64,000 nucleotides of DNA from NCBI RefSeq assembly GCF_018555385.1, contig NZ_JAFEJS010000002.1, positions 186,001 to 250,000 of the forward strand, written 5' to 3'. Below the pieces are notes generated by a model. The model saw only the letters and a program-made list of their open reading frames with translations. It was not told where the DNA came from and ran no database searches. The position numbers and the translations under genes are program-made. Shown here piece by piece: positions 1 through 5,684 of this stretch. Source of the DNA: Bifidobacterium santillanense. GTDB taxonomy: Bacteria > Actinomycetota > Actinomycetes > Actinomycetales > Bifidobacteriaceae. The first letter of the stretch is position 1. Every line of letters starts with the position of its first letter.

Positions 1-822
1 GGGGAGACCGAGCATGCGCCATGCGCGCGCCGCTCGTTCCGACGGATCGAACGACTCCTCGTCGGCGGACCCCTCGTTGAGGGGGAACAGACGGCTGTCG
101 CTGGCGGACCAGTCGGCGACGACCACCAGAGAGGTCAGGATAATCTGCGACCGTCTGCGCAGCGGATGCCGGGACAACGACCGCAACACCGGTAGGGCGC
201 CGGTCATGTCCGCGGCCCAATCCAGCAGTTCATTGCGGGTCTCGGCCCATGCCTCGCCCCCGACGAACGTGCCCATGCGATAGCTTTCCGGACTCCCGGG
301 GGTGACCAGCCGACGTTTGTCCCCGGTCAGCGATGTGCCGTGGTGGCCCGCGACGATGCAGGCGACGCCATAGGCGAACGTTCCCGGTTCGACCGGGAAT
401 CCCTGGGCGAGGAACCAATCCCGGACCGCCGCATACCCGACGAGTTCATGACGATATGACGAGCGTTCCCGGTCCTTGGCGACGATCGGATCAATGCTCA
501 GACCGGAGTCTCTCACCCTGTCGGCGAGTCCGTCGTTCTGCGCGACGAATGCCGGGGACGCCTTGCCGACATCATGGATCGCAGCGATGAAGCGGTACAA
601 CGTCCCGGCGGTCTCCTCCCCGCCTATGTCACGGGCCAGCATGCCCTTGACATCATCGGCGACGAATTCCTCCCACACATGCGACGCCGTCTCACCTGCA
701 TCGGCGAGATGCTGCCACAGCTGCAGATACCGGTCGTCATTCTCGGGGCCGCGGTAGGCGGTCTTCGCCCATATGGATGCGGCACGCGGGGAAATCCGTC
801 GGTTCCATGCACATCGAGTCAT
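1..822 (-). CDS. cas3: Type I-E CRISPR helicase-nuclease Cas3, N-terminal part (cut by window edge)
   Basis: In type I CRISPR immunity, Cas3 is recruited by target-bound Cascade and degrades the DNA. Only the first 274 residues are visible; the frame is open to base 1. The HD nuclease domain is readable: H38, the HD pair at 83-84 in a context AIHDVGK, H125, and the HH pair at 160-161 in AGHHG. The helicase half and the remaining cas genes would lie to the left. The ATG at 822 has AAGGGA upstream and lies 6 nt after the stop of the Fic gene, so the two are almost certainly co-transcribed and probably translationally coupled. The I-E assignment rests on the HD layout and on the I-E-like repeats upstream; the rest of the operon cannot be seen. 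Confidence 0.85.
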   Translation of the reverse strand, partial: MTRCAWNRRISPRAASIWAKTAYRGPENDDRYLQLWQHLADAGETASHVWEEFVADDVKGMLARDIGGEETAGTLYRFIAAIHDVGKASPAFVAQNDGLADRVRDSGLSIDPIVAKDRERSSYRHELVGYAAVRDWFLAQGFPVEPGTFAYGVACIVAGHHGTSLTGDKRRLVTPGSPESYRMGTFVGGEAWAETRNELLDWAADMTGALPVLRSLSRHPLRRRSQIILTSLVVVADWSASDSRLFPLNEGSADEESFDPSERAARAWRMLGLP

Positions 823-828
823 ATCACA

Positions 829-2067
829 TCAGTCCCTTCTCAATCGGGCCGCATAGTCGTCCAGCACCGACAGGATGCCCCGATGTTCCCATACGGTGTT
901 CCGCCGGCCGCCTGTGATCTCGTCCAGCACCCCACGTTCCGTCAACACCCTGATCGCGCGCGATGCGGTCATCGGGGACAGCCCCAGCGTTTTGCTCAGG
1001 TAGTCGCGGTTGATGATCGGCTGTTCGATCAGCCGGGGCAGCACCCGCCACACCGCCGAATCCCTGCGTATGCCGTGCAGCCGTTCGCGGGATTCCGCCA
1101 ACTGTTCTTCCAACGCATCGATCAGCTTCACGCCGGTCGAGGCGGAGTATCGGCAGGCGTCCGCGAAGCACGCCACGATGGGTTCCGCATCCCCCTCACG
1201 GTAGGCGCCCAACGCCGCGAAGTACCGTTGCGTATCCGTCAGCAGCCCCGCCGAGACCGGTGGCGTGGTGCTACGGATCAGACCTTTGTTGCGCAGCACC
1301 GCATGCACCAGCGCACGCCCCACCCTGCCATTGCCGTCCACGAAGGGGTGGATGGTCTCGAATTGCGCATGCACCACCGCGCACTGCAATATGACCGGCA
1401 GATCGTCCCTTTGCAGGAAGGCCAGCAGATCATCCATGCAACCTGCGACCAGTTCCGGCTGCGGCGCCACATGCGTGGCGTGACGCGGTCCCCTTCCTCC
1501 GCCGACCCATACCAGCTGATCGCGGTATCGGCCGGCATATTGCGCGAATCCGGGTTGCGCGGAGAGCAAAGCCCGATGCATGGCGAGCAGGTGAGGCTCA
1601 TCAAGGTTCCGGGCGAAATCCAGCGCCGCTCTCATGGCATGGACGTTGCCCACCACGATCTGGGCGTTGCCGCCGTGCCCCTCGCCCAGTTCCTGCAGCG
1701 CCAGCTTCCTCGCCCCAACGGTCAGGTTCTCAATCTGTGATGATGACGTGGACTCCGTGCGCAGCAGGATGGATGCCATCGGACTGAGCTCGTGATCGTC
1801 CATGCCAAGCTTCGCCGCAGCATACGCATCGAACCGGCTCAGCTCGTACGCAGCCTCCTCCAGATCCGCGGAGATGCCTTCCGGCAGGGAGAACCCGTAT
1901 TGCGCGATCACGGCCGGCACCGCCGAATAATAGTCGCCGGTTTCACGCCTGCGCTCCGATCGTGACATGTAGGCATCGAAATCGGGGTGCCAGACATGAG
2001 GTTCGTGGCCTATTGGGGGAACGGGCAGCGGGGATGGGAATGATCGGGGGACATCCGTTACGCTCAT
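829..2067 (-). CDS. Fic-domain protein (AMP-transferase family) with inhibitory motif and C-terminal winged helix
   Basis: Fic proteins usually transfer AMP from ATP to a target protein; some act as toxins. The 412-residue protein has the full catalytic signature HPFxDGNGRxGR at residues 240-251 with catalytic H240. It also has an N-terminal inhibitory-helix motif of the [ST]xxxE[GN] form (S109 to N114, S-S-Q-I-E-N), so it is a class II Fic that should be auto-inhibited. A Fic N-terminal domain precedes the core, and a winged-helix DNA-binding-like domain occupies about residues 335-412. ATG at 2067 follows a strong AAGGAGG (2072-2078). It is the first gene of a transcript continuing into cas3. 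Its target and its role in the CRISPR operon are unknown. Confidence 0.9.
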   Translation of the reverse strand: MSVTDVPRSFPSPLPVPPIGHEPHVWHPDFDAYMSRSERRRETGDYYSAVPAVIAQYGFSLPEGISADLEEAAYELSRFDAYAAAKLGMDDHELSPMASILLRTESTSSSQIENLTVGARKLALQELGEGHGGNAQIVVGNVHAMRAALDFARNLDEPHLLAMHRALLSAQPGFAQYAGRYRDQLVWVGGGRGPRHATHVAPQPELVAGCMDDLLAFLQRDDLPVILQCAVVHAQFETIHPFVDGNGRVGRALVHAVLRNKGLIRSTTPPVSAGLLTDTQRYFAALGAYREGDAEPIVACFADACRYSASTGVKLIDALEEQLAESRERLHGIRRDSAVWRVLPRLIEQPIINRDYLSKTLGLSPMTASRAIRVLTERGVLDEITGGRRNTVWEHRGILSVLDDYAARLRRD

Positions 2068-2100: not shown

Positions 2101-2129
2101 GTAATATGATTTCCATTAATCTTAATCAA
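2101..2129 (-). promoter_or_regulatory. Promoter of the fic-cas3 operon
   Basis: Reading on the minus strand, a -35 TTGATT (2129-2124), a 17-nt spacer and a -10 TATTAC (2106-2101) lie in an AT-rich stretch unlike the GC-rich surroundings. Transcription should start near 2094, giving a short leader with AAGGAGG before the fic start at 2067. The -35 hexamer is also the first six positions of the guide-matching site described separately. Confidence 0.7.
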
Positions 2130-2132
2130 CTT
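2112..2132 (-). promoter_or_regulatory. Protospacer-like site over the fic-cas3 promoter, AAG-flanked
   Basis: Minus strand: AAG (2132-2130) is followed by TTGATTAAGATTAATGGA (2129-2112). The mini-array spacer reads TTGATAAAGTTCAATGGA over the same 18 positions. Fifteen match; mismatches are at 6, 10 and 12. AAG is the canonical type I-E PAM, and I-E Cascade leaves every sixth guide base unpaired, so positions 6 and 12 would not count. Complementarity ends after position 18, a partial match that would allow binding without licensing Cas3. Binding would cover the -35 to -10 region. Confidence 0.7.
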
Positions 2133-2177
2133 AAGATAATACAGTATACACCACGAACGGCTCATCGGCATCGTATG

Positions 2178-2267
2178 CGATCATCCCCGCAAATGCGGGG
2201 CAGTTCACCGAGGCAACTCCTCCATTGAACTTTATCAATGGTTCATCCCCGCATATGCGGGGCGTAA
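2178..2267 (-). CRISPR. One-spacer CRISPR-like mini-array (type I-E-like repeats)
   Basis: Two 28-nt repeats, minus strand, occupy 2267-2240 and 2205-2178. Each carries a CCCCGC-NNNN-GCGGGG stem followed by ATGAACC or ATGATCG, the type I-E design. The flanks have diverged (TTACG against AACTG), and the pitch is 62 nt, one more than the usual 61. The single 34-nt spacer begins at 2239, with guide position 1 at 2238, and contains a small inverted repeat (CATTGA/TCAATG). It sits upstream of fic-cas3 on the same strand, not at the end of the operon where a working array would be. This fits a dedicated regulatory guide better than a spacer-storing array. Confidence 0.75.
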
Positions 2268-2294
2268 CGGCGACATACGGATATGGTAACGGAA

Positions 2295-2339
2295 AACCTG
2301 TTTTCCGTCTCTCCGCGTGGGGGCGACGGAAAACAGGTT
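2295..2339 (-). terminator. Intrinsic terminator of ileS
   Basis: A perfect 15-bp inverted repeat (2295-2309 and 2325-2339, AACCTGTTTTCCGTC on one arm) with a 15-nt loop lies 43 nt after the ileS stop and is followed on the minus strand by TTTTCC. One arm overlaps a second small palindrome (GGAAAAC/GTTTTCC, 2291-2306), so an alternative fold is possible. It separates ileS from the mini-array unit. Confidence 0.75.
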
Positions 2340-2381
2340 CGTTCATCGGCGGTCAGACCGACTGCAGTCGGTCGCCCGGCC

Positions 2382-5300
2382 TCAGGCCTTCTTGACCTCG
2401 GCCTTGAGTTCGTCGCCCTCGGCGACGGTGAAGGCGCCGTCGGCGACGAGCGTGGACTCGGCGATCAGGGCCTTGAACTCCTCGATCTTGGCGACCTCGG
2501 CGACCGGCACGGTCAGAGTCAGCGCGATGGAGTCGGCCACGTCGAGACCGGCCTCCTTGCGGGCGTCCTGGATCACGCGGATCGCGTCGCGAGCGTAGCC
2601 CTCGGCCTCGAGCTCGGGGGTGAGCGCGGTGTCGAGGATCACGAAGCCGCCGGTCGGCAGCGCGGCGGACACGGACACGGCCTCCTCGGCGGCGTCCTTC
2701 TCCTCCACGCGGTTGATCAGCTCGTACTCGCCGTCCTCGAGCGCGATCTCGCCGTTCGGGGTCTCGACGACCGGGGCGCCGGAGGCGGCGTCCACATGCC
2801 AGGCGCCGGACTTGGACGCCTTGATCGCGAACTGGACGTCCTTGCGCAGACGCTTGCCGGCGACGCGGGCGTTGACGCGCAGCTCGTGCACGATCTTGAG
2901 GCCCTGGGAGGCAGCGTCCTCGAGCGTGCAGAACTCGATGTCCTTGACGTTGAGCTCGGACTTGAGCAGCTCGGCGTACGGCTCGACGGCGGCCACGTCC
3001 TCGGCCACGACGGTGAGCTTGGACAGCGGCTGGCGCACGCGGATCTTGGCGCCCTTGCGCAGCGACAGGGTGCCGGAGACGACCTCGCGGACCTTCTCCA
3101 TCGCGGCGACCAGCGCCGGATCGTCGACGAGCACGCGGCCCAGCTCGGTGGCCTCGCCGGTCTTCTCGTCCGCCACGAACGGCCAGTCGGCCAGATGCAC
3201 GGACTCGCCGCCGGTCAGGCCGCGCCACACGGACTCGGCCTCCATCGGGGCGAGCGGCGCGAGCACGCGCATGAACGCCTCGAGCACGGTGTACAGCGTG
3301 TTGAACGCGTTCTCGTCCTTGTTCAGGAAGCGGTCGCGGCTGTTGCGGATGTACCAGTTGGTGAGCACGTCGATGAAGTCGGACGCGGCGTCGCACGCGT
3401 CGGAGATCGCGAACTCGTTCAGGGACTTCTCGGTCGACTCGATCAGGCGGCGGGTGCGGGCCAGCAGGTAGCGGTCCATCTCCGGCAGCGAGGCGACCTC
3501 GTCCGCGCGCAGCTGGCGCGCGTCGTAGCCGGCGGCGTTCGCGTACAGCGTGAAGAAGTAGTAGGAGCTCCACACCGGCAGCATGACCTGGCGGACGGTG
3601 TCGCGGATGCCCTCGGCGGTGACGATGAGGTTGCCGCCGCGGAGGATCGGCGAGGACATGAGGAACCAGCGCATCGCGTCGGAGCCGTACTTGTCGAACA
3701 CGCCGTTGACGTCCGGGTAGTTGCGCAGGTGCTTGGACATCTTCTGGCCGTCGGAGCCGAGGACGATGCCGTGGCAGATCACGTTCTTGAACGCCGGGCG
3801 GTCGAACAGGGCGGTCGCCATGACGTGCAGCAGGTAGAACCAGCCGCGGGTCTGGCCGATGTACTCGACGATGTAGTCGGCCGGGAAGTGCTGCTCGAAC
3901 TTCTCCTTGTTCTCGAACGGGTAGTGGAACTGCGCGAACGACATGGAGCCGGACTCGAACCAGCAGTCGAGCACGTCGGAGATGCGGTGCATCGTGGACT
4001 TGCCGGTCGGGTCGTCCGGGTTCGGGCGGGTGAGGTTGTCGATCCACGGACGGTGCATGTTGACGTTGCCGTCCTTGTCGCGCGGGTAGTCGCCGAAGTC
4101 GCGCTTCAGCTCCTCGAGCGAGCCGTACACGTCGACGCGCGGGTGCTTCGGGTCGTCGGAGACCCACACCGGGATCGGGGAGCCCCAGAAGCGGTTGCGG
4201 GAGATGGACCAGTCGCGGGCGTTGGCGAGCCACTTGCCGAACTGGCCGTCCTTGACGTTCTCCGGGATCCAGTTGATCTCCTGGTTGAGCTCCAGCAGAC
4301 GCGGCTTGATCTTCGTGACGGACACGAACCAGGAGGACACCGGCTTGTAGATCAGCGGCGTGGCGCAGCGCCAGCAGTGCGGGTAGGAGTGCACGTAGCT
4401 CTTCTCCTGGAAGAGGATCGCGCGGCGCTCCTCCGGGATGGAGGCGAGCGGGCCGTCGCCGGCACGCAGGTTACGCAGGATCGGCAGGTTGGCGTCGAAG
4501 ACGAACATGCCCTCGTACTCGGGGCACTGCGCGGTGAAGCGGCAGCCCTCGTCGAGCACGTCGGTGCTCTTGATGCCCTTGGCGTTGAGGGTGTTCATAT
4601 CGTCCTCGCCGTAGGGGGCTTGGTGCACGAGGCCGGTGCCCTCGACGGTGTCGACGTAGTCGGCGGTGAAGATGGTGTAGCCGTTCGGACCGGGCACGTG
4701 GCCCTCGGACTCGGCGGTCTCGCCGGCGAAGTACGGGAAGACCGGGTAGTAGCGGCGGCCCTCGAGCTCGGAGCCCTTGAGCTCGCGCACGATCTCGTAG
4801 TTCTCGCCGAGCTCCTTCTCGTAGTGCGGCAGCAGGGCCTTGCCGAGGTAGAACTTCTTGCCGGCGAACTTGCCCTCGGTCGGACGCACCTCGACGTAGT
4901 CGATGTCGGCGCCGACGACGATCGCGAAGTTGGTCGGGACGGTCCACGGGGTGGTGGTCCAGAAGACGGCGTAGGCGTCCTCGTCGCGCAGCTTGACGGC
5001 CACGGAGACGGTGGTGTCCTGACGGTCCTGGTACACGTCGGCGTCCATGCGCAGCTCGTGCGCGGACAGCGGCGTGCGGTCCTTCGGGCAGTACGGCAGG
5101 ACGCGGTAGCCCTGGTACGACAGACCCTTGTCGTAGAGCTGCTTGAAGGCCCACATCACGGACTCCATGTACGGGATGTTGAGGGTCTTGTAGCCGTGCT
5201 CGAAGTCGACCCAGCGGGCCTGGCGGTGCACGTAGTCCTGCCATTCGTGCGTGTACTTCAGGACGGAGGCGCGGCAGGCGTCGTTGAACTTGTCGATGCC

Positions 5301-5684
5301 CATCTTCTCGATCTGGTCGACCGAGTCGATGCCGAGCTCCTTCTGCGCCTCGAGCTCGGCCGGCAGGCCGTGGGTGTCCCAGCCGAAGACGCGGTTGACC
5401 TTGCGGCCCTTCATCGTCTGGTAGCGCGGGATCACGTCCTTGGCGTAGCCCGTAAGCAGGTGGCCGTAGTGCGGCAGGCCGTTCGCGAACGGCGGACCGT
5501 CGAAGAACACGAACTCGTTCTGGCTGTGGTCGCCGGAGGGGTTGCGCTCGACCGACTTCTGGAAGGTGTCGTCCTTGTCCCAGTAGTCGAGGACCGTCTC
5601 CTCCATGTGCGGGAAGCTGGGGTTCGGCGCGACGTGCGCGGTCTCGCCGCCCTCGTTCGCCTTGGGATATACGTTTTCGCTCAC
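2382..5684 (-). CDS. ileS: Isoleucyl-tRNA synthetase, eukaryote-like (type 2) form
   Basis: Charges tRNA-Ile with isoleucine in the cytosol. The 1100-residue protein has the class I signature HYGH at residues 72-75 and the second signature KMSKH near 648-652, with the CP1 editing insertion between them. Length and the KMSKH variant fit the eukaryote-like IleRS2 group, members of which are often poorly inhibited by mupirocin; bifidobacteria are known for that resistance. The start is GTG at 5684 preceded by GAGGAG, which is locked in a hairpin of the T-box leader. The gene is monocistronic, between the T-box and a strong terminator. The enzyme call is very secure; the resistance inference is from family knowledge. 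Confidence 0.97.
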   Translation of the reverse strand: MSENVYPKANEGGETAHVAPNPSFPHMEETVLDYWDKDDTFQKSVERNPSGDHSQNEFVFFDGPPFANGLPHYGHLLTGYAKDVIPRYQTMKGRKVNRVFGWDTHGLPAELEAQKELGIDSVDQIEKMGIDKFNDACRASVLKYTHEWQDYVHRQARWVDFEHGYKTLNIPYMESVMWAFKQLYDKGLSYQGYRVLPYCPKDRTPLSAHELRMDADVYQDRQDTTVSVAVKLRDEDAYAVFWTTTPWTVPTNFAIVVGADIDYVEVRPTEGKFAGKKFYLGKALLPHYEKELGENYEIVRELKGSELEGRRYYPVFPYFAGETAESEGHVPGPNGYTIFTADYVDTVEGTGLVHQAPYGEDDMNTLNAKGIKSTDVLDEGCRFTAQCPEYEGMFVFDANLPILRNLRAGDGPLASIPEERRAILFQEKSYVHSYPHCWRCATPLIYKPVSSWFVSVTKIKPRLLELNQEINWIPENVKDGQFGKWLANARDWSISRNRFWGSPIPVWVSDDPKHPRVDVYGSLEELKRDFGDYPRDKDGNVNMHRPWIDNLTRPNPDDPTGKSTMHRISDVLDCWFESGSMSFAQFHYPFENKEKFEQHFPADYIVEYIGQTRGWFYLLHVMATALFDRPAFKNVICHGIVLGSDGQKMSKHLRNYPDVNGVFDKYGSDAMRWFLMSSPILRGGNLIVTAEGIRDTVRQVMLPVWSSYYFFTLYANAAGYDARQLRADEVASLPEMDRYLLARTRRLIESTEKSLNEFAISDACDAASDFIDVLTNWYIRNSRDRFLNKDENAFNTLYTVLEAFMRVLAPLAPMEAESVWRGLTGGESVHLADWPFVADEKTGEATELGRVLVDDPALVAAMEKVREVVSGTLSLRKGAKIRVRQPLSKLTVVAEDVAAVEPYAELLKSELNVKDIEFCTLEDAASQGLKIVHELRVNARVAGKRLRKDVQFAIKASKSGAWHVDAASGAPVVETPNGEIALEDGEYELINRVEEKDAAEEAVSVSAALPTGGFVILDTALTPELEAEGYARDAIRVIQDARKEAGLDVADSIALTLTVPVAEVAKIEEFKALIAESTLVADGAFTVAEGDELKAEVKKA

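What the first reader, a model, noticed from the sequence alone, without database searches (positions are those of the whole stretch)
2101..2267. Mini-array guide matches the fic-cas3 promoter: a CreR/CreA-like autoregulatory guide
Seen: two I-E-like repeats with one spacer lie just upstream of fic-cas3. Guide positions 1-18 match the promoter at 2129-2112 in 15 places; mismatches are 6, 10 and 12. The matched site starts exactly at the -35 hexamer, is preceded by AAG, and spans most of the core promoter. Known: type I-E Cascade uses AAG-type PAMs and leaves every sixth guide base unpaired (6, 12, 18); partial guides in CreTA and CreR systems direct Cascade to repress promoters without Cas3 cleavage. 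Inferred: Cascade loaded with this guide represses fic and cas3 together, and loss of Cascade (for example by anti-CRISPRs) releases Fic and Cas3.
Basis: partly seen in the sequence, partly recalled or inferred. Interest (0 to 1): 0.95.

Follow-up and report, generated by a model that had tools for sequence, protein, structure and literature searches.

The report
Cascade-guided switch for Fic and Cas3
In a Bifidobacterium genome a two-repeat mini-CRISPR carries a guide matching 15 of 18 letters of the stretch just before the cell's own fic and cas3 genes, and related species keep such a match with different letters, so the CRISPR complex likely holds these genes off and would release the Fic enzyme, probably a cell-stopping antiviral protein, when phages disable CRISPR.

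Summary
Two degenerate type I-E repeats (window 2240-2267, 2178-2205, minus strand) flank a 33-nt spacer. Its first 18 nt match 2129-2112 next to AAG, except at 6, 10 and 12. Elsewhere in the 2.77-Mb genome only the guide itself matches as well; 0 of 20,000 leader shuffles do, outside positions 6, 12, 18.

All six fic mini-arrays found (this and 5 other species) have guides and sites that differ between species yet match each other; five cas3 genes without fic in front do the same. Seed matches (1-5, 7-11) average 9.4 of 10 against 7.0 for swapped partners; 0 of 200,000 permutations reach this. Position 6 matches in 1 of 11, position 12 in 0 of 11: the published CreA pattern. Ten of 15 spacers are 12 nt short.

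Cascade most likely represses the fic-cas3-cascade operon. CreR in type I-E is known; a SoFic-like Fic under it appears new in the searches made. Against a lethal Fic: B. reuteri keeps fic, guide and site without detectable cas3, cse1 or cas6e. RNA and expression are untested.

The parts
2240..2267 (-). First degenerate I-E repeat (psiR1), 24 of 28 identical to the C12 array repeat; would donate the 5' handle AUGAACC(A)
2206..2238 (-). Spacer (33 nt); nucleotides 1-18 = 2238-2221 match the fic leader
2178..2205 (-). Second degenerate I-E repeat (psiR2), 23 of 28 identical to the C12 array repeat
2130..2132 (-). PAM-like AAG
2112..2129 (-). Protospacer-like site in the fic leader, 15 of 18 matches to the guide (mismatches 6, 10, 12)
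2101..2129 (-). Candidate core promoter TTGATT-17-TATTAC (weak, unproven)
829..2067 (-). fic, 412 aa, SoFic-like Fic with HPFVDGNGRVGR motif and SSQIEN inhibitory-type motif
1..822 (-). Start of cas3 (1071 aa; runs off the window; cse1, cse2, cas7, cas5, cas6e, cas1, cas2 follow on the contig)

Best explanation
The mini-array upstream of fic carries a guide sequence that is predicted to be made into a CRISPR-like RNA and to lead the cell's own type I-E Cascade to the fic-cas3 leader, so that Fic, Cas3 and the Cascade genes behind them would stay low while Cascade works and rise when it is disabled or drawn away. Shown by sequence: the two degenerate repeats, the guide, the AAG-flanked site, the closely packed genes fic-cas3-cse1-cse2-cas7-cas5-cas6e-cas1-cas2 on one strand, and guides and sites that differ together between species. 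Inferred: co-transcription, Cas6e processing, Cascade loading, binding without Cas3 cleavage because pairing ends at nucleotide 18 (2 of the next 14 match, counted by eye), and repression. More tentative (about 0.5): Fic is a SoFic-like abortive-infection enzyme and works as an alarm effector released when anti-CRISPRs block Cascade, with the guide in place of the palindrome (probable operator) that many relatives carry.
For: (1) The six Bifidobacterium fic loci found with a mini-array have a site matching their own guide (15, 15, 11, 13, 13, 13 of 18); own pairing is the unique best of 720 permutations. (2) Five cas3 loci without fic in front show the same; over the 11 pairs the seed mean is 9.36 against 7.01 off-diagonal and 0 of 200,000 permutations reach the trace. 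With the four mini-arrays dropped there added back (15 in all), still 0 of 100,000. (3) Matches by position, of 11: 11, 11, 10, 11, 11, then 1 at position 6, then 11, 10, 8, 10, 10, then 0 at position 12. Sites were ranked by positions 1-5 and 7-11; the 18-nt total served only to break ties. The 1-5 plus 7-11 seed is what mutational work found for CreA (PMC8501985, passages). (4) PAM: AAG 8, AAA 2, AAT 1 of 11. (5) Guide start to second stem is 25 in 10 of 15 mini-arrays, 12 less than the 37 that the usual 61-nt period implies: two Cas7 steps of 6 nt (recalled). (6) In B. vespertilionis fic sits behind cas2 with its own mini-array while cas3 has another. (7) Both window repeats resemble the C12 array repeat. 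(8) Fic matches PADLOC SoFic, E 8.9e-68.
Against: No RNA, binding or expression data. The window guide has one seed mismatch (position 10); for H. hubeiense CreA in Haloarcula, changing any of the ten seed nucleotides cost about 10^4-fold in a transformation assay (PMC8501985, passages). Of the 11 pairs, 6 have at least one seed mismatch. Some guides match a foreign leader as well as their own: of 18, L003's guide with L004's leader (11) and L005's with L006's (13); on the seed, L001's guide with L002's leader (9) and L006's with those of L005 and L049 (8); 24 of 110 swapped pairs score 8 or more, highest 9. Taken singly, 36 of 2,000 shuffled window guides and 176 of 2,000 for L006 reach the seed score. 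In L005 and L006 the first repeat was recognised by eye; L005's is mostly its handle. B. reuteri (G068) keeps an intact fic, a mini-array and 9 of 10 seed matches though no cse1, cas3 or Cas6e was found, so derepressed Fic is not lethal there, or Cascade was lost recently. The I-E PAM in this genus was not measured. The window guide can fold on itself (CCATTGA...TCAATGG). The promoter is weak.
Confidence: 0.8

Rival explanations
1. Plain CreR: the guide serves to autorepress the cas operon and fic is only a passenger inserted between mini-array and cas3.
For: Five cas3 genes without fic in front carry the same arrangement; CreR in type I-E is published (stated in review PMC13131331, passages; the original paper is not held).
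Against: In B. vespertilionis fic, away from cas3, has its own mini-array and site; in B. reuteri fic with mini-array stands without cas genes. So the guide goes with fic itself.
Confidence: 0.25
2. Addiction module: Fic is a lethal toxin and the guide its RNA antitoxin, so that cells losing Cascade die (CreTA-like).
For: SoFic proteins are reported as toxic, causing abortive infection (PMC12249575, abstract and passages); fic is reduced to remnants beside cas3 in G074 and G102, weak support since any gene may decay.
Against: G068 keeps an intact fic and no detectable Cascade. The SSQIEN motif suggests an autoinhibited enzyme.
Confidence: 0.1
3. Chance likeness of two AT-rich stretches, or two copies of a protein operator.
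For: Guide and site are AT-rich and both touch short inverted repeats in this window (CCATTGATAAAGTTCAATGG and ATCTTAAGTTGATTAAGAT, 7-nt arms). On the seed score alone the window pair is not rare (36 of 2,000 guide shuffles).
Against: Full-length shuffles, whole-genome search, the permutation tests, the fixed register behind the handle and PAM, and the unmatched positions 6 and 12.
Confidence: 0.02
4. Remnant of an ordinary array with a spacer once taken from the chromosome or a phage.
For: Two repeats, near-canonical spacer length (33 nt), repeats close to the genome's own.
Against: No exact 20-mer in viral contigs and no phage record covering 80% of the query; relatives keep the arrangement with diverged letters and mostly a spacer of fixed short length.
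Confidence: 0.03

Closest known systems
CreR (cas-regulating RNA; Liu et al. 2023, Cell Host Microbe, not held; described in passages of PMC13131331 and PMC12737573)
   Same: Mini-CRISPR with partial complementarity to the promoter of the own cas genes, type I-E included; would answer to anti-CRISPRs.
   Different: Here a SoFic-like fic is the first gene of the controlled operon; in B. vespertilionis and B. reuteri the mini-array lies before a fic that is not followed by cas3.
CrePA (Shu et al. 2025, Nat Chem Biol, not held; section 10 of PMC12737573 read)
   Same: A protein effector held off by a CRISPR-like RNA plus Cascade, released by anti-CRISPRs.
   Different: CreP is described there as typically a KilA-N protein acting on FtsZ; here a Fic enzyme directly before cas3 and cascade; toxicity untested.
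CreTA (PMC8501985, PMC9458426, passages)
   Same: Two degenerate repeats, seed 1-5 and 7-11, PAM, site upstream of the target gene.
   Different: The target is a protein gene, not a small RNA toxin. CreTA's first repeat is the more diverged; here it is so in 2 of 5 genomes compared (G003, G005), not in the window (24 against 23 of 28), G069 or G111.
SoFic anti-phage system (PMC12249575, abstract and passages; PADLOC SoFic)
   Same: Matches the PADLOC SoFic model over most of its length; Fic motif and an N-side inhibitory-type motif, as in class 2 Fic proteins.
   Different: The published E. coli SoFic has a 47-residue protein antitoxin AS1; here a guide RNA would do the silencing.

Membership tests
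CreR | Mini-CRISPR of repeat-like elements beside the own cas operon | tested here: met
CreR | Partial, seed-centred match to the own cas promoter region with a PAM | tested here: met
   9 of 10 seed positions, AAG; one seed mismatch at 10; promoter itself only predicted
CreR | Match kept while guide and site differ between relatives (a prediction, not a published criterion) | tested here: met
CreR | RNA made and processed; Cascade-dependent repression | not testable with these tools
   no transcript or expression data
CreTA | Small RNA toxin under the guide-controlled promoter | tested here: not met
   the gene behind the site is a 412-aa Fic protein gene
CrePA | Protein toxin under a CRISPR-like antitoxin RNA | tested here: inconclusive
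   a protein of a toxic family (SoFic model), no KilA-N domain found; toxicity not testable
SoFic (class II Fic) | Fic motif HxFx(D/E)GNGRxxR and N-side (S/T)xxxE(G/N) motif (motif rules recalled) | tested here: met
   HPFVDGNGRVGR and SSQIEN in the window; both motifs in 6 of 6 mini-array Fic proteins
SoFic (class II Fic) | Protection against phages | not testable with these tools
   no experiment
Type I-E CRISPR-Cas | cas3, cse1, cse2, cas7, cas5, cas6e, cas1, cas2 in one locus | tested here: met
   cas1 and cas2 hits partial; Cas6e

The most novel reading that the evidence does not exclude
A CRISPR-guarded Fic: in one Bifidobacterium clade a SoFic-type AMPylating abortive-infection enzyme gave up its own palindromic operator and came under an RNA guide used by Cascade, so that any anti-CRISPR that stops Cascade both raises cas expression and sets off Fic. 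It travels as a unit (guide plus fic), is fused to the head of the cas operon in four species, sits at its tail in a fifth, and is orphaned in a sixth.
Probability: 0.45. Interest if true: 0.88.

Novelty: new variant of a known kind. Interest (0 to 1): 0.77.

Why it matters
It would add an AMPylating Fic enzyme to the effectors that CRISPR systems hold in check with their own guide RNAs. It joins two known ideas, cas autorepression (CreR) and CRISPR-repressed protein toxins (CrePA), in one operon. It gives 11 natural guide-site pairs (plus three with a target elsewhere) in which the seed rule (1-5, 7-11) and the unmatched positions 6 and 12 can be read from evolution alone. B. reuteri, with guide and fic but no detectable Cascade, is a natural knock-out in which the toxin question can be tested directly.

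Tried and rejected
Chance likeness: rejected by shuffles, genome search and permutations. Phage origin of the spacer: no exact 20-mer in viral contigs; 9 phage records with short partial matches, those listed at E about 8. Operator-only reading: 46 of 75 fic homologs without a mini-array have a perfect palindrome (arms of 8, gap 3-13) within 180 nt upstream, against 0 of 6 with one; rate in mononucleotide shuffles 2.1% (the 80 loci, themselves the best 80 of 344, plus L001). The six are one clade, so this is one event, not six. Consensus promoter scan: nothing at its threshold.

Mini-arrays elsewhere: a loose stem-loop pattern on the 80 loci also hits GC-rich DNA at random; clear pairs about 50 nt apart were seen only in Bifidobacterium L070, L071, L072 and L074, and the second repeat alone in L073 (judged by eye; no guide-site test was run on the rest). 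The loci L150-L179 and the partial fic loci L023-L030 were not scanned for fic mini-arrays, except L029, which was read; the fic of G096 (L023) is cut by a contig end.

Of 30 cas3 loci scanned (16 of them printed), 4 are the fic-cas3 operons with a mini-array, 5 have a mini-array matching the cas3 leader, 3 have one matching elsewhere, 1 has one at a truncated cas3, and 17 showed no pair; of the 17, L047 is cut by a contig end upstream and L065 and L066 have a single repeat-like element that I did not pursue. L045 and L048 were recognised by eye and then scored by script.

Literature: the rows listed hold no paper that, by title or abstract start, joins Fic to a CRISPR-derived regulatory RNA. 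Liu 2023, Shu 2025 and Shmakov 2023 (the last recalled) could not be read, so an earlier mention there is possible.

Full report
WHAT IS THERE. On the minus strand, between ileS (2382-5684, named from its look, no call) and fic (starts 2067), lie two I-E-like repeats (2267-2240 and 2205-2178) around a 33-nt spacer (2238-2206), then a 110-nt leader. Repeat 1 is 24 of 28 and repeat 2 is 23 of 28 identical to the repeat of the ordinary array on the same contig (61-nt period); stem and most of the handle are kept, the 5' ends are not. Guide 1-18 equals the site at 2129-2112 in 15 places (mismatches 6, 10, 12) and the site follows AAG. fic is followed after 6 nt by cas3, then by cse1, cse2, cas7, cas5, cas6e, cas1 and cas2 on the same strand (the cas1 and cas2 hits are partial).

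IS IT CHANCE. Dinucleotide shuffles of the leader reach 15 of 18 in 3 of 20,000 cases, 1 of 20,000 with a PAM; none has at most one mismatch outside 6, 12 and 18. Shuffles of the guide: 42, 6 and 0 of 20,000. In the whole genome (2,771,886 bases) the pattern with N at 6 and 12 is found at the guide, at this site (1 mismatch) and once more at 3 mismatches.

RELATIVES. The Fic protein was searched in 112 genomes of the genus. Nearly full-length orthologs are listed from 21 genomes (L001-L021); L022 is split and others are partial. Upstream of L001-L022, six have a mini-array (L001-L006): the window genome, B. rousetti (G069), B. reuteri (G068), B. vespertilionis (G111), B. aerophilum (G003) and B. 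amazonense (G005); the names come from records of equal contig length and place (lengths). The pattern search found both repeats in four of the six; in L005 and L006 the first one was recognised by eye, and L005's is mostly its handle. Each has its own guide and, in its own leader and on the same strand, a matching site: 15, 15, 11, 13, 13 and 13 of 18. The own pairing is the best of all 720 permutations, reached only by itself, though two guides match one foreign leader as well as their own (seed version 137 of 100,000 draws, the rate of the identity).

CAS3 WITHOUT FIC IN FRONT. Thirty cas3 loci were scanned. Five have a mini-array and a site in the cas3 leader: G111, G007, G049, G062 and G018 (L045, L046, L048, L049, L052). 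G111 thus has two mini-arrays, one for cas3 and one for fic. Over the 11 pairs the seed (1-5, 7-11) matches 9, 10, 9, 10, 9, 8, 9, 10, 10, 10 and 9 of 10, mean 9.36, against 7.01 for swapped partners (highest 9); 0 of 200,000 permutations reach the sum. Individual pairs differ in strength: the number of 2,000 guide shuffles doing as well runs from 0 (L046, L049) to 176 (L006), and is 36 for the window; the combined test carries the claim. Four mini-arrays without a full leader match were left out there (L063, L067-L069, 7 of 10 each, no better than swapped pairs); with them the sum is still reached by 0 of 100,000.

THE SIGNATURE. Matches by guide position, of 11: 11, 11, 10, 11, 11, 1, 11, 10, 8, 10, 10, 0, 6, 7, 4, 8, 8, 3. 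Sites were ranked on positions 1-5 and 7-11, with the 18-nt total only as a tie-break in favour of more matches, so the near-absence of matches at 6 and 12 is not built in; 1 of 22 where composition predicts 29% gives P = 0.005 (asked after seeing the data). In haloarchaeal CreA exactly nucleotides 1-5 and 7-11 are needed and 6 and 12 are free (PMC8501985, passages). Spacer geometry agrees: guide start to the next stem is 25 in ten of the 15, 26 in two, 37 in two and 38 in the window. Ordinary arrays here have a 61-nt period, which implies 37. So most regulatory spacers are exactly 12 nt short, two Cas7 steps (6 nt each, recalled), which would give a smaller Cascade.

WHAT FIC IS. Fic domain (Pfam Fic, E 5.9e-20), PADLOC SoFic (E 8.9e-68), closest solved chain by sequence 7cb8, a Fic-domain protein. 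The motifs HPFVDGNGRVGR and SSQIEN suggest class II (motif rule recalled). SoFic is reported as a toxic, abortive-infection protein with autoinhibition and, in E. coli, a small antitoxin AS1 (PMC12249575, abstract and passages). Fic toxicity here is inferred from that family.

FIC, NOT ONLY CAS3, FOLLOWS THE GUIDE. In B. vespertilionis fic and its mini-array lie behind cas2, not before cas3. In B. reuteri no cas gene was found in the 20 kb around fic, and no cse1, cas3 (E up to 1e-10) or Cas6e in the genome; its guide still matches 9 of 10 seed positions. The six mini-array Fic proteins form one side of a branch in a tree of 26 chosen Fic proteins (17 of the genus, 9 from outside; support 92/87). 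Among the 75 other homologs examined, 46 carry a perfect palindrome close upstream against 0 of 6 here. A weak DeoR-type HTH hit at the C-terminal end of the L034 Fic (none listed for the window's) makes it likely that these palindromes are the operator of Fic; the reading that a protein operator was replaced by an RNA guide is inference from one clade.

HOW IT LIKELY WORKS. Mini-array RNA (promoter candidates upstream in L002, L004 and L005, not tested against shuffles; weak in the window) is cut by Cas6e, loaded into Cascade, and led by the seed to the leader. In the window, pairing stops at nucleotide 18, so Cas3 cleavage is not expected. Fic, Cas3 and Cascade are then kept low. When anti-CRISPRs, loss of Cascade or a surplus of ordinary crRNA remove the complex, the operon rises. 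CreR work describes this logic for cas genes in I-B, I-E and V-A (PMC13131331, passages; PMC12737573, passages), and CrePA for a protein toxin (PMC12737573, section 10). Here the two are one operon. All steps after the DNA are inferred.

AGAINST. One seed mismatch in the window; weak promoter; self-folding of the guide; ties with foreign leaders; no RNA data; an intact fic without detectable Cascade in B. reuteri speaks against strict lethality; the PAM in this genus was not measured (the passages seen of PMC4521832 give PAMs only for type II).

VERDICT. The finding is real and its reading is supported by matching differences between species. It is a new variant of CreR/CrePA-type regulation with a SoFic-like enzyme as the guarded gene.

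Noticed in passing
L067, L068, L069 (G104, G077, G108), about 230-280 nt before the cas3 match: A divergent I-E subtype has a mini-array whose guide matches 10 of 10 seed positions of a site apparently inside the 3' end of cas3, about 70-80 nt before cse1 and on the opposite strand, next to AAC, with mismatches at 6 and 12. In G108 guide and site share the same change at position 4.
   Followed up: partly
L063 (G027): Mini-array before a truncated cas3; by eye, a site next to AAG matches guide positions 1-5, 7 and 8 and then breaks off (seed score 7 of 10).
   Followed up: partly
G000:C1:36436 onward (L181): The window genome has a second, divergent type I-E locus (cas3 36% identical to that of G069) with its own array; no mini-array was seen by eye in the 350 nt before its cas3.
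   Followed up: partly
L029/L042 (G074), L051 (G102), L024 (G047): Remnants of fic: the 3' end lies directly before cas3 in G074 and G102, broken fragments in G047.
   Followed up: no
L065 (G039), L066 (G014): A single I-E repeat-like stem-loop about 290 nt before cas3, without a partner.
   Followed up: no
L037/L075 (B. ruminantium, G070): fic lies roughly 900-1000 nt before a divergent I-E cas3, without a mini-array but with a palindrome upstream of fic.
   Followed up: partly
window 2283-2340: Long inverted repeat (CCTGTTTTCCGTC...GACGGAAAACAGG) between ileS and the mini-array, perhaps a terminator that isolates the mini-array; seen by eye, not called by the consensus scan.
   Followed up: no
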